Both the position numbers and the translations under genes were made by a program. Of a DNA stretch of 10,168 nucleotides, positions 4,329 through 6,993 are shown one piece after another. Position 1 is the first letter of the stretch; every line of letters begins with the position of its first letter. Source of the DNA: DASVDK01 sp036562265 [NCBI: Thermodesulfobacteriota bacterium] (GTDB lineage Bacteria; DASVDK01); NCBI GenBank assembly GCA_036562265.1, contig DATCKS010000622.1:1-10168 (forward strand). The letters are read 5' to 3'. The notes beneath the pieces were generated by a model. It made no database searches. It saw only the letters and a list, made by a program, of their open reading frames with translations, and was not told the DNA's origin.

Positions 4329-5207
4329 ATGAACCGTCCGCTCGTCGTGGGAGAGATCGCCTACGCCAACGTGGTGCCGCTGTTCGACGCCTGGCGCGCC
4401 GCCGCCGGGGTCGGGCCCGACGAGGCGCCCCCCGGCGTGCGGATCGTCCGCGGCGAACCGGCCGCGCTCAACGAGGCGCTCGCGGCCGGCGAGATCGACC
4501 TCGCCCCCTGCTCGTCGATCGAGTACGCCCGCCGCCCCGACGCGTACCGCCTCTTGCCCGACCTGTCCATCGCCGCCGACGGCGCGGTGGAGAGCGTGCT
4601 CCTCTTCGCGCGGCGGCCCCTCGAGGCGCTCGCCCCGGCCGGCCGCAGGCCGCGCGTCGCCCTCTCGCCGGCGTCGGCCGCCTCGAACGCGCTCCTGCGC
4701 CTGATCCTCGCCGAGCGCGACATCGGGGCCGAGTTCGCGCCGGCCGACATGGCGAGCGCCGACGGCGCCGATGCCGTCCTCGTGATCGGCGACCAGGCCC
4801 TTGCGGCCGCCGCCGACGACGCCCGCGTCGCACGGGCGGCCGGCTACCCGCTGGTCTACGACCTGGGGTGCCTCTGGCGCGACCTGACCGGGCTCCCCTT
4901 CGTGTTCGCGCTCTTCATCGTCCGGGCCGAGACGGCCGAGACCCGGCCGGAGGCCGTGGCCCGGATCGGCGCCGCCCTGGCCGCGGCCAAGCGCGCCGCC
5001 CCGGCCCGCCGCCTCGAACTCGCGGCCCGGGAGGCCGGGCGAGGCGGCCTGTCCGCCGAGCGGCTGGCCGCCTACTGGTCCGCCATCCGGTACGACCTCG
5101 GCCCGCGCGAGCAGGCGGGCCTTACGGCCTACTTCCGCCTCGCCGCCAGGCACGGATTGCTACCCGCCGCTCCCCCGCTTCGCTTCACGTCCGCCCCTCT
5201 TCCCTAA
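4329..5207 (+). CDS. mqnA: Chorismate dehydratase MqnA (futalosine pathway of menaquinone synthesis)
   Basis: MqnA converts chorismate to 3-[(1-carboxyvinyl)oxy]benzoate, the first step of the futalosine route to menaquinone, in the cytoplasm. The 292-residue protein has the periplasmic-binding-protein-like fold seen in this family. Recognisable stretches are VGEIAYANVVPLF (7-19), GEPAALNEALAAGEIDLAPCSSIEYA (42-67), YRLLPDLSIAADGAVESVLLF (73-93), ADAVLVIGDQAL (148-159) and YDLGCLWRDLTGLPFVFALF (177-196). Asn14 and Ser89 lie where the family has active-site residues, as far as I recall. The related enzyme MqnD shares the fold but not this motif set, so MqnA is the better call. The last 15 or so residues (Pro-rich) look dispensable. 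No other mqn gene is in the window. A strong hairpin separates it from the efflux operon, and a regulator gene follows after 93 bp. Confidence 0.9.
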   Translation: MNRPLVVGEIAYANVVPLFDAWRAAAGVGPDEAPPGVRIVRGEPAALNEALAAGEIDLAPCSSIEYARRPDAYRLLPDLSIAADGAVESVLLFARRPLEALAPAGRRPRVALSPASAASNALLRLILAERDIGAEFAPADMASADGADAVLVIGDQALAAAADDARVARAAGYPLVYDLGCLWRDLTGLPFVFALFIVRAETAETRPEAVARIGAALAAAKRAAPARRLELAAREAGRGGLSAERLAAYWSAIRYDLGPREQAGLTAYFRLAARHGLLPAAPPLRFTSAPLP

Positions 5208-5300: not shown

Positions 5301-6053
5301 ATGCGCACGGAGCGGCCCAACGGCCCGCCGGTCACCTCGACCGTCGAGGACTATCTCCAGCTCATCTACAAGATGGTGCAGGAGCACCGGCCGGTGCTCG
5401 CGTCGCGGCTCGCCGAGCGGCTCGGCGTCTCGCTGCCGACGGTCCTCGGGACCCTCCAGCGGATGACCCGGGACGGCCTGGTCGAGAGCGACGAGAAGCG
5501 CCAGATCGGTCTCACCGCGCGCGGCCTCGGTCTCGCCGAGTCGATGGTTCGCCGCCAGCGCCTCGCCGAGCGGTTCCTCGTCGACGTGCTCGGCCTCGAC
5601 TGGGCCGAGGCCAACGTCGAGGCCCACCTCCTCGAGCACGCCATCAGCCCCAAGGTCGAGGCGCGCCTCAACGCCATGCTCCGGTCCCCCGCGACCTGCC
5701 CCCACGGCAACCCCATCCCGGGCAACGGCGCCGAGACGCCGCGCGACCTCGTCACCGTCGCGTCGGCCCAGCCGGGCGAGGTCTTCGTCGTCGACCGCCT
5801 GGCCGAGGACGCCGAGGGGGACGGTGAGTTCCTCGGCTGGCTCCAGCGTCACGGCGTCATGCCGGGCCGCCGGCTGACGGTGGTCGAGCACGAGCGCGTG
5901 GCCGGCACCGTGGTGCTCGAGGGGGAGAAGGGGCGCGTCACCTTCGGCCTCTCGGCCGCCGAACGGGTCTACGGCCGGCGCGAGGCGTCCGGCCGGGCCG
6001 CGGGCAACGGCGCGGCGAAGAGCCGCGACCGGGCCCACGAGAGGCGGGCGTAG
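5301..6053 (+). CDS. DtxR/MntR-family metal-dependent transcriptional regulator with FeoA/SH3-like domain
   Basis: This 250-residue cytoplasmic repressor probably senses Mn(II) or Fe(II). Residues 12-75 form the winged helix-turn-helix (TVEDYLQLIYKM, then SRLAERLGVSLPTVLGTLQRMTRDGLV). Residues 76-140 are the metal-binding and dimerisation domain, including RQRLAERFL, LLEHAISPKVEARL and the family hallmark CPHGNPIPG. Residues 148-227 form a FeoA/SH3-like domain, and a basic tail (228-250) follows. By alignment from memory, the primary metal site reads Asp17, His109, Glu112 and His113, against Met10/Cys102/Glu105/His106 in DtxR. Asp17 matches Asp8 of B. subtilis MntR, which leans towards manganese. 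The ancillary site seems weakened, with Gln86 and Asn105 at the two His positions and Glu90 kept. A TTAGG-N5-CCTAA repeat just upstream suggests autoregulation. No metal transporter gene is in the window, so its targets must lie elsewhere. Confidence 0.92.
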   Translation: MRTERPNGPPVTSTVEDYLQLIYKMVQEHRPVLASRLAERLGVSLPTVLGTLQRMTRDGLVESDEKRQIGLTARGLGLAESMVRRQRLAERFLVDVLGLDWAEANVEAHLLEHAISPKVEARLNAMLRSPATCPHGNPIPGNGAETPRDLVTVASAQPGEVFVVDRLAEDAEGDGEFLGWLQRHGVMPGRRLTVVEHERVAGTVVLEGEKGRVTFGLSAAERVYGRREASGRAAGNGAAKSRDRAHERRA

Positions 6054-6098: not shown

Positions 6099-6968
6099 TC
6101 AGGCCCTGCCGAGCGCGGCGCCGAGCGCCCCGAGGAACGCCTCGGGCTCTTCGATCGGCGGGTCGTCGGCGGCGTCCTCGACGACGTGCAGCGGCCACCC
6201 GTAGCGCTCGCTCGCGGCCTCGGCGACGGCCAGCGGGGTCGCCCGATCGTGCCGCCCCCAGATCAGGGTCGTCGGGACCGCGATCCGTGCGAGATCGGCC
6301 GGCGGGATCGCCGGCAGGCCGAACTGCTCCATGAGGCTGCGCTGAGCGGGCTTCAGGTCCGCCGCGCCCGCGCGGTCCAGGTTGTACGCCCGGAGCCGGT
6401 CCCAGCGCTCCCCCATCCGTTCGCGCAGGCGATCCAGGTCGAACGCGCACTGCTGCCAGAGACGATCGTGCGTCTCCGCGGTCGGCCGCGCGACGAACTC
6501 GGCCAGGGCCTCCCCGAAGGCCGGCTCGGGGCGGAAGGGCGTGAGCCCGAGCGTGTCCACGAGCACCAGCCGACCGAGCCGGTCGCCCCGGTCGGCGGCA
6601 AAGCGGATCGCGACGGCGCCGCCCAGCGTCTGCCCCACCACCGCGGGCGGCGTCTCGCAGGTGTGCTCGATCAACGCCTCCACCCACGCCGACGCGCGAG
6701 CGGGGTCGAGCGGGCCGTCGGCGGCCCCCGATGCGCCGTGGCCCGGCAGGTCCGGGGCGATCACGCGATGGGCCGTCACCAGGCCCGGAATCACGCGCAT
6801 CCAGTGGCCGGCGTAGGCGCCGGGGCCGTGCAGCAGCACCACGGGCGCTCCCGTGCCCCCCGTAAGGACGGCGGTCGAGATGCCCGCGAGTTCGAGTCGT
6901 CGCTCCGTGACGGGCAGTCCGTCCAGCACCCGCTGGCGGGTCGCCGTGTGCGTGTGCGCATTGGTCAT
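6099..6968 (-). CDS. Alpha/beta-hydrolase-fold protein with substituted catalytic residues (probable pseudoenzyme)
   Basis: The 289-residue protein has the order of motifs of single-domain alpha/beta hydrolases. The oxyanion-loop motif LLHGPG is at 45-50 and APDLPGHGAS at 71-80. The nucleophile-elbow strand VVGQTLGGAVAIRFA follows at 110-124, then a helical cap at about 140-225, IWGRHD (236-241) and a C-terminal PIEEPEAFL segment (271-279). The elbow normally reads GxSxG but here reads GQTLG, with Thr114 (ACG) at the nucleophile position. The usual catalytic His, expected a few residues before the PEAF segment, is Asp268 (GAC) in DAADDPP. The acid Asp241 is kept. Serine-hydrolase activity is therefore doubtful, and a binding or sensing role is possible. 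The ATG at 6968 is chosen over the GTG at 6989 because AAGGAG precedes it at 6-base spacing. It is the last gene of the minus-strand group, 163 bp after a TPR-LuxR regulator. Confidence 0.88.
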   Translation of the reverse strand: MTNAHTHTATRQRVLDGLPVTERRLELAGISTAVLTGGTGAPVVLLHGPGAYAGHWMRVIPGLVTAHRVIAPDLPGHGASGAADGPLDPARASAWVEALIEHTCETPPAVVGQTLGGAVAIRFAADRGDRLGRLVLVDTLGLTPFRPEPAFGEALAEFVARPTAETHDRLWQQCAFDLDRLRERMGERWDRLRAYNLDRAGAADLKPAQRSLMEQFGLPAIPPADLARIAVPTTLIWGRHDRATPLAVAEAASERYGWPLHVVEDAADDPPIEEPEAFLGALGAALGRA

Positions 6969-6980: not shown

Positions 6981-6993
6981 GGAGGCCACGCCC

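What the first reader, a model, noticed from the sequence alone, without database searches (positions are those of the whole stretch)
6099..6968. Alpha/beta-hydrolase fold with both nucleophile and catalytic His replaced
The nucleophile elbow reads GQTLG, so Thr114 stands where Ser (or Asp/Cys) is expected. The segment that should hold the catalytic His reads DAADDPPIEEPEAF, with Asp268 in that place. The acid Asp241, the oxyanion HGPG motif and the rest of the fold look intact. Each change is one base from the usual codon (ACG versus TCG, GAC versus CAC). Loss of two triad members with a preserved fold suggests a ligand-binding pseudoenzyme rather than decay. A precedent is the plant receptor GID1, a hydrolase fold that lost its catalytic His. 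Its neighbour encoding a TPR-LuxR regulator makes a sensor role plausible.
Basis: partly seen in the sequence, partly recalled or inferred. Interest (0 to 1): 0.6.

Follow-up and report, generated by a model that had tools for sequence, protein, structure and literature searches.

The report
Conserved pseudo-hydrolase in regulator-linked cassettes
This gene encodes a hydrolase-shaped protein whose family has kept the fold but replaced two of its three cutting residues, sits beside a gene regulator and is often joined to other small-molecule-modifying enzymes, so it probably holds a compound for partners instead of cutting it.

Summary
The ORF at 6968-6099(-) is an Abhydrolase_6 protein with Thr114 at the nucleophile elbow, Asp268 in place of the catalytic His, and the acid Asp241 kept. 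It is not decay. In 22 loci (window included; alpha-proteobacteria, actinobacteria, haloarchaeal plasmids) none has Ser, Cys or Asp at the elbow (Ile 11, Leu 6, Val 2, Thr, Gly, Ala 1 each); Asp268 is kept in 21 (one Asn), Asp241 and Asp269 in 22. Of 17 paralogues, 16 keep Ser/Asp and 16 keep His. The nearest outside relative (40%) has Ser-His-Asp.

Thr is not the conserved feature; the acid cluster is. A LuxR gene lies upstream in 20 of 20 bacterial loci, but not in the two haloarchaeal ones, and it also occurs without this protein. In 18 of 22 loci the pseudo-hydrolase is fused to, or near, a methyltransferase or FAD oxidoreductase; methyltransferase fusions occur in both domain orders.

Best reading: a non-hydrolytic ligand-holding partner of tailoring enzymes. 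A LuxR receptor or a rebuilt Asp-based enzyme remain possible. The mechanism is inferred, not shown.

The parts
6099..6968 (-). pseudo-alpha/beta-hydrolase ORF, 289 aa from ATG (alternative GTG start at 6989)
   Evidence: 22-member family
6627..6629 (-). codon of Thr114 (ACG) at the nucleophile elbow; Ile/Leu/Val/Ala/Gly in relatives
6555..6557 (-). codon of Asp138 at the end of strand 133-137 (beta6), a second acid position; Asp 21 of 22, Asn once
6246..6248 (-). codon of Asp241, the triad acid; 22 of 22
6165..6167 (-). codon of Asp268 in the place of the catalytic His; Asp 21 of 22, Asn once
6162..6164 (-). codon of Asp269, 22 of 22 in the family, Ala in the canonical relative L009
7132..8760 (-). 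TPR-LuxR regulator, 542 aa (GerE HTH at its C-terminus), upstream on the same strand
   Evidence: Pfam; orthologue upstream of the pseudo-hydrolase in 20 of 20 bacterial loci

Best explanation
[quoted passage not shown] The elbow carries a hydrophobic residue in 20 of 22 members (Ile, Leu, Val or Ala; Thr in the window, Gly once). The former relay positions carry a set of carboxylates: Asp138 after strand beta6, Asp241 after beta7, Asp268 and Asp269 after beta8. I think it most likely binds a small molecule, the substrate or product of a tailoring enzyme, and hands or orients it to that partner: a SAM-methyltransferase, a BBE-type FAD oxidase or a FAD_binding_3 enzyme, encoded near it or fused to it. 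The TPR-LuxR gene would switch the cassette on. In the window only the LuxR gene and the pseudo-hydrolase lie together, so any partner enzyme would have to be encoded elsewhere. Shown: the residue losses, their conservation, the gene order and the fusions; the fold by profile match and prediction. Inferred: ligand binding, handing-over, and co-regulation.
For: Family-wide loss of nucleophile and His with the rest under constraint. Fusion to a C-terminal methyltransferase domain in nine rhizobial loci (L001-L006, L029, L033, L034), to an N-terminal methyltransferase in a Solirubrobacteraceae MAG (L030) and to a BBE FAD oxidase in the same MAG (L007). Stand-alone copies near the same kinds of enzyme: methyltransferase in L008, L027, L028, L031; FAD oxidase in L090, L091, 66-67% identical to the fused one; FAD_binding_3 enzyme in L089. 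The methyltransferase homologous to the rhizobial fused domain is a separate gene before the pseudo-hydrolase in both haloarchaea (49-58% identity to the nine rhizobial domains). Precedents, read as passages: VdtD, a hydrolase-like protein without the serine that affects the stereochemistry of a laccase product (PMC6600887); ABHD5, Asn for Ser (PMC9694394), a cofactor for lipases (PMC11878206); the inactive Arb2 domain that follows the catalytic domain of deacetylases (PMC11878206).
Against: Four of 22 loci (window, L032, L035, L036) show no such partner enzyme next door. The partner enzyme type varies, so one shared ligand is not obvious. Conservation of four carboxylates could mean a rebuilt catalytic site. 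The fusion model was too poor to show a domain interface (pLDDT 39). No ligand is known.
Confidence: 0.42

Rival explanations
1. Ligand receptor of the adjacent TPR-LuxR regulator. The pseudo-hydrolase binds a small molecule and contacts the TPR region to switch transcription, as GID1 does with DELLA proteins.
For: LuxR gene upstream, same strand, in 20 of 20 bacterial loci; distance matrices of the two proteins correlate at r = 0.92, reached by 0 of 5000 permutations (shared descent alone could give much of this, and the LuxR row of L005 is only its best piece). In the window, L032, L035 and L036 the pair stands alone. GID1 keeps Ser and Asp and has Val/Ile for His (PMC5709395, passages).
Against: Both haloarchaeal loci lack a LuxR match and have an upstream gene annotated as a transcriptional regulator instead, of HVO_A0261_N/FilR1_middle type in L027. 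LuxR relatives at 51-54% identity occur with no hydrolase match around them. Fusion to enzymes is not needed for a receptor.
Confidence: 0.2
2. A rebuilt, non-hydrolytic enzyme. Asp268, Asp241, Asp138 and Asp269 act as general acid-base residues or hold a cation for an isomerase, lyase or cyclase step on the substrate that the neighbouring enzymes then methylate or oxidise.
For: Asp138, Asp268, Asp269, Cys104 and Cys174 are conserved in 21 or 22 of 22 members and all differ in the canonical relative L009. The only Asn at 268 comes with the only Asn at 138, in the same protein. Related LuxR cassettes without this protein carry SnoaL-type proteins (Pfam SnoaL in L093 and L083, a weak sub-threshold SnoaL_2 match in L075).
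Against: The only hydrolase-fold enzymes without the serine that the section I read describes as working by a known dyad, carboxy lyases, still use acid and His (PMC11878206 section 26). No reaction is known, and spatial proximity of the four Asp was not measured.
Confidence: 0.27
3. Plain decay or sequencing error in one genome.
For: Each change is one base from a usual codon (codons).
Against: The same losses in 22 loci from distant lineages; dN/dS 0.10-0.36 in 8 of 9 pairs.
Confidence: 0.02
4. Still an ordinary hydrolase using a relocated Ser and His.
For: The predicted fold is close to active hydrolases (2r11_C: Z 27.4, rmsd 2.2, 232 aligned). His77 is kept in 21 of 22 and Ser80 in 18 of 22.
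Against: Among Ser, Thr, Cys and His, only Thr32, His47 (oxyanion HG), Cys104 and Cys174 are invariant in 22 of 22; no Ser is. Many paralogues, and not only this family, also have His near position 77.
Confidence: 0.04

Closest known systems
Meta-cleavage-product hydrolases and other Abhydrolase_6 enzymes (BphD, HsaD, CarC)
   Same: Fold, oxyanion HG, elbow glycines, Asp after strand beta7; best PDB sequence matches and structural matches (CarC 1j1i: Z 26.3, rmsd 3.7, 233 aligned)
   Different: They have Ser-His-Asp (recalled for these names); this family has neither Ser nor His
GID1 gibberellin receptor
   Same: Hydrolase fold with the His replaced, by Val/Ile (PMC5709395 passages)
   Different: GID1 keeps Ser and Asp; HSL family; plant receptor with a known partner
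NDRG proteins
   Same: Hydrolase fold without the canonical triad (PMC12272907 passages)
   Different: Human family; no enzyme fusion or LuxR neighbour in the passages read
Bacterial DUF3530 (PF12048) and DUF687 (PF05095)
   Same: Bacterial hydrolase-fold families described as lacking the triad, with a proposed non-enzymatic or binding role (PMC11878206 passages)
   Different: Not among the three Pfam families that match this protein at E up to 0.01; different neighbours and hosts in the passages
VdtD of viriditoxin biosynthesis
   Same: Hydrolase-like protein with no nucleophilic Ser, helping a tailoring oxidase in its gene cluster (PMC6600887 passages)
   Different: Fungal, similar to carboxylesterases and neuroligins, has Asp at the Ser position; not compared by sequence here
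ABHD5/CGI-58 and Arb2 domains of deacetylases
   Same: Hydrolase folds that serve another enzyme, as lipase cofactor (ABHD5) or as a fused inactive domain (Arb2)
   Different: ABHD5 keeps Asp and His; neither is linked to methyltransferases or LuxR genes in the passages read

Membership tests
Alpha/beta-hydrolase fold (Abhydrolase_6) | profile match above the gathering score, and predicted fold like solved hydrolases | tested here: met
   78.6 bits against a cut-off of 26.3; VIA-align Z 24-27 with rmsd 2.2-3.8 over 196-252 residues in the 50 rows shown; Foldseek TM-scores only 0.57-0.71
Catalytic serine/Asp/Cys hydrolase | Ser, Cys or Asp at the nucleophile elbow | tested here: not met
   Thr114; 0 of 22 family members have Ser, Cys or Asp
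Catalytic serine/Asp/Cys hydrolase | His after strand beta8 | tested here: not met
   Asp 21 of 22, Asn 1 of 22
Catalytic serine/Asp/Cys hydrolase | acid after strand beta7 | tested here: met
   Asp241, 22 of 22
GID1-like hormone receptor | triad Ser kept, His lost | tested here: not met
   both lost
GID1-like hormone receptor | ligand-dependent binding of a transcriptional regulator | not testable with these tools
   needs protein interaction assays
Curated NCBIfam hydrolase families (PcaD, BioH, HsaD, BphD, MenH and others) | score above the curated cut-off | tested here: not met
   23 families match at E up to 0.01, none reaches its cut-off
TPR-LuxR regulator (neighbour) | C-terminal GerE HTH | tested here: met
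   GerE 66.7 bits against 23.5
TPR-LuxR regulator (neighbour) | TPR repeats | tested here: inconclusive
   TPR_12 at 20.2 bits, under its cut-off of 30.1

The most novel reading that the evidence does not exclude
The family is an alpha/beta-hydrolase-fold enzyme that has exchanged its nucleophile and catalytic His for a cluster of aspartates, and catalyses a non-hydrolytic acid-base or cation-assisted step (isomerisation, cyclisation or lyase-type) within mobile LuxR-controlled tailoring cassettes. That would be a hydrolase-fold active site with neither nucleophile nor His, carried by bacteria and haloarchaea.
Probability: 0.25. Interest if true: 0.8.

Novelty: new variant of a known kind. Interest (0 to 1): 0.58.

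Why it matters
Hydrolase folds that lost catalysis are known in eukaryotes (GID1, NDRG, ABHD5) and as two little-studied bacterial families (DUF3530, DUF687) in the papers I saw. A prokaryotic family that lost both nucleophile and His, occurs in bacteria and haloarchaea, and is joined to methyltransferases in both orders and to an FAD oxidase, is a natural test of how a dead enzyme domain may serve a live one. The two haloarchaeal members are annotated 'alpha/beta hydrolase' and 'alpha/beta fold hydrolase', which would mislead function prediction. Stand-alone, fused and enzyme-free versions allow deletion and swap tests.

Tried and rejected
Decay or error: rejected on 22 conserved loci. Thr114 as a family nucleophile: rejected, since 21 relatives have Ile, Leu, Val, Ala or Gly. 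Relocated triad: disfavoured, no invariant Ser and no invariant His but His47. LuxR dependence as the only role: weakened by haloarchaea and by LuxR relatives without the hydrolase. Mirror-tree r = 0.92 is compatible with plain shared descent; no unrelated control pair was run.

Led nowhere: the structure of the rhizobial fusion (pLDDT 39) gave no interface; the model file was not available to scripts, so no distances. Paper searches for this family or for LuxR plus hydrolase plus methyltransferase cassettes showed nothing on it in the rows listed (20 of 67, 6 of 6, 5 of 5, 3 of 3, 10 of 29, 2 of 2), in an open-access library only. The organism of the window was not identified.

Limits: ORF calls outside annotated plasmids are by script; partner identity rests on Pfam for ten proteins, eight and seven, and on BLAST to those. 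Genome searches scored only part of the candidates in each genome and at E 1e-30 or 1e-40, so absence in a genome is not proven. The 17 control paralogues are those given loci out of 72 other matches; one of them, L047, has an in-frame stop and Gly at the elbow, and L052 has a gap at the His. The pattern for the SAM motif missed several domains and was not used. Partner labels in the trees are my own reading.

Full report
Observation. The finding's ORF is there: window 6968-6099 on the minus strand, 289 residues from ATG. It is an Abhydrolase_6 protein, and its best sequence matches in the PDB are meta-cleavage-product hydrolases. No NCBIfam hydrolase family reaches its cut-off. Thr114 (ACG) sits at the elbow, Asp241 (GAT) at the acid, Asp268 (GAC) where the His belongs. 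The AlphaFold2 model from ten sequences is good in the core and poor in the cap (mean pLDDT 78). It resembles solved hydrolases (best 2r11_C: Z 27.4, rmsd 2.2, 232 aligned; Foldseek TM-scores 0.57-0.71) and puts the three residues after the strands that carry them in active enzymes. I could not read coordinates, so I claim topology, not geometry.

Family. A scan of genome contigs gave nine relatives, and an alignment showed that eight share the losses while the ninth, L009 at 40% identity, has Ser and His. Wider searches found more, always rare: 3 of 349 genomes in the class of G007, 1 of 347 in the order of G001, the centre itself, 4 of 199, 3 of 247, 3 of 146 (one search covered the same family), 5 of 119 in the genus of G002; centre genomes are counted in. 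A plasmid search added Sinorhizobium meliloti (67%), Haloterrigena turkmenica (58%) and Halorussus halophilus (53%). In all I used 22 distinct loci, the window included; the other 21 are 50-70% identical to it.

Conservation. Over the 22: position 114 is Ile 11, Leu 6, Val 2, Thr 1, Gly 1, Ala 1; Asp241 22; Asp268 21 and Asn 1; Asp269 22; Asp138 21 and Asn 1, the same protein as the Asn at 268; Cys104 22; Cys174 22. L009 has Ser, His, Ala, Gly, His and Ala at 114, 268, 269, 138, 104 and 174. As a control, 17 other hydrolases from the same genomes were aligned (those given loci, of 72 other matches): Ser or Asp at the elbow in 16 of 17 (Gly in L047), His in 16 of 17 (a gap in L052). dN/dS of the hydrolase region is 0.10-0.36 in eight of nine pairs; the ninth, 0.69, has dS of only 0.02. 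So the nucleophile position was freed and the relay re-fixed as acids. That argues for a function of the altered site, though salt bridges or helix capping could also fix the Asp residues.

Surroundings. The window's LuxR gene (8760-7132) has an orthologue upstream on the same strand in 20 of 20 bacterial loci (the window's own included), 49-65% identical in the other 19. From the end of the LuxR match to the start of the hydrolase match there are 139-222 bases in twelve loci and 973-1780 in eight. In the eight lie a methyltransferase gene (L001, L003, L008), an ORF family without a Pfam match (L002-L005, L033) or the N-terminal methyltransferase domain of L030. In the reverse direction, 11 of 12 LuxR genes at 49% or more in eleven genomes head a pseudo-hydrolase locus; the twelfth (L075, 54%) is followed by a weakly SnoaL-like ORF and an acyl-CoA-dehydrogenase-type one. 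Nine more distant LuxR relatives, 33-48%, were also read. On plasmids there are LuxR relatives in Streptomyces avidinii (51%), Rhodococcus opacus (45%), Embleya (43%) and Phyllobacterium, the last in three pieces. A search for the hydrolase in these 14 regions found one match, distant (29%, other strand, L085), and none in 13. Embleya has a BBE FAD oxidase behind its LuxR gene; Phyllobacterium has a SnoaL protein and a FAD_binding_3 enzyme that is 59% identical to the FAD partner in L089.

Partner enzymes. Nine rhizobial loci have a C-terminal methyltransferase domain fused to the pseudo-hydrolase; L030 has an N-terminal one; L007 has a BBE FAD oxidase fused. Separate partners: methyltransferase in L008, L031, L027, L028; BBE oxidase in L090 and L091; FAD_binding_3 enzyme in L089. 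The window, L032, L035 and L036 show none. The haloarchaeal methyltransferase is 49-58% identical to the nine rhizobial fused domains, and the small methyltransferase after the pseudo-hydrolase in L031 is 64% identical to that of Haloterrigena. In L033 the LuxR and pseudo-hydrolase are 84-88% and 83-85% identical to L001, L002, L003 and L005, while the fused methyltransferase is only 59-63%. This suggests that the enzyme domain was exchanged while the other two stayed. Trees of both proteins place the window within a supported group of twelve with the alpha-proteobacterial rows; enzyme-free loci fall in two separate places.

The canonical relative. L009 follows an ORF that is 67% identical over 141 residues to the weakly SnoaL-like ORF behind the LuxR gene of L075 in the same genome. 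Its contig is 3.1 kb, so a LuxR gene could not be seen. This hints that an active hydrolase occupies the same kind of cassette.

Mechanism. The fixed features are a hydrolase fold with lost hydrolysis residues, fused or nearby tailoring enzymes in 18 of 22 loci, and a transcription regulator whose type changes with the host (LuxR in bacteria; a gene annotated as transcriptional regulator in both haloarchaea, FilR1_middle type in the one scanned). A ligand-holding helper for tailoring enzymes fits most of these; precedents are VdtD, ABHD5 and Arb2. The LuxR receptor model explains the enzyme-free loci better but not haloarchaea. A rebuilt Asp-based enzyme explains the acid cluster best but has no precedent in what I read. 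I give these 0.42, 0.20 and 0.27.

Verdict. The combination (double loss, acid cluster, two-way methyltransferase fusion, haloarchaeal members) did not appear in the rows my literature searches listed, which cover open-access text only.

Noticed in passing
L033 7307-9034(-): The fused methyltransferase domain is 59-63% identical to those of relatives whose hydrolase domain is 83-85% and LuxR 84-88% identical: an apparent domain exchange at the fusion boundary.
   Followed up: partly
L027, L028 (haloarchaeal plasmids): The pseudo-hydrolase and methyltransferases sit behind an archaeal regulator gene (HVO_A0261_N/FilR1_middle type in L027) in place of the LuxR gene: a regulator swap across domains of life.
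   Followed up: partly
L075, L083, L084, L093, L095: The wider LuxR family heads or neighbours many small cassettes (SnoaL, methyltransferase, FAD oxidases) without the pseudo-hydrolase, in actinobacteria and rhizobia.
   Followed up: partly
L002-L005, L033, between LuxR and pseudo-hydrolase: An ORF of about 227 aa without a Pfam match is shared by five rhizobial loci (60-62% identity).
   Followed up: no
L005 2387-3997; L093 4154-5558: The LuxR matches fall in three pieces in both, so broken or mis-assembled.
   Followed up: no
L009/L076 and L075: The canonical (Ser/His) relative follows an ORF 67% identical to the SnoaL-like ORF behind a LuxR gene in the same genome, hinting that an active hydrolase occupies the same kind of cassette.
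   Followed up: partly
window 5301-6053(+): DtxR-type iron-dependent repressor with a C-terminal FeoA domain, convergent with the pseudo-hydrolase.
   Followed up: no
window 4329-5207(+): Menaquinone biosynthesis protein (VitK2_biosynth) in a 74.7% GC window.
   Followed up: no
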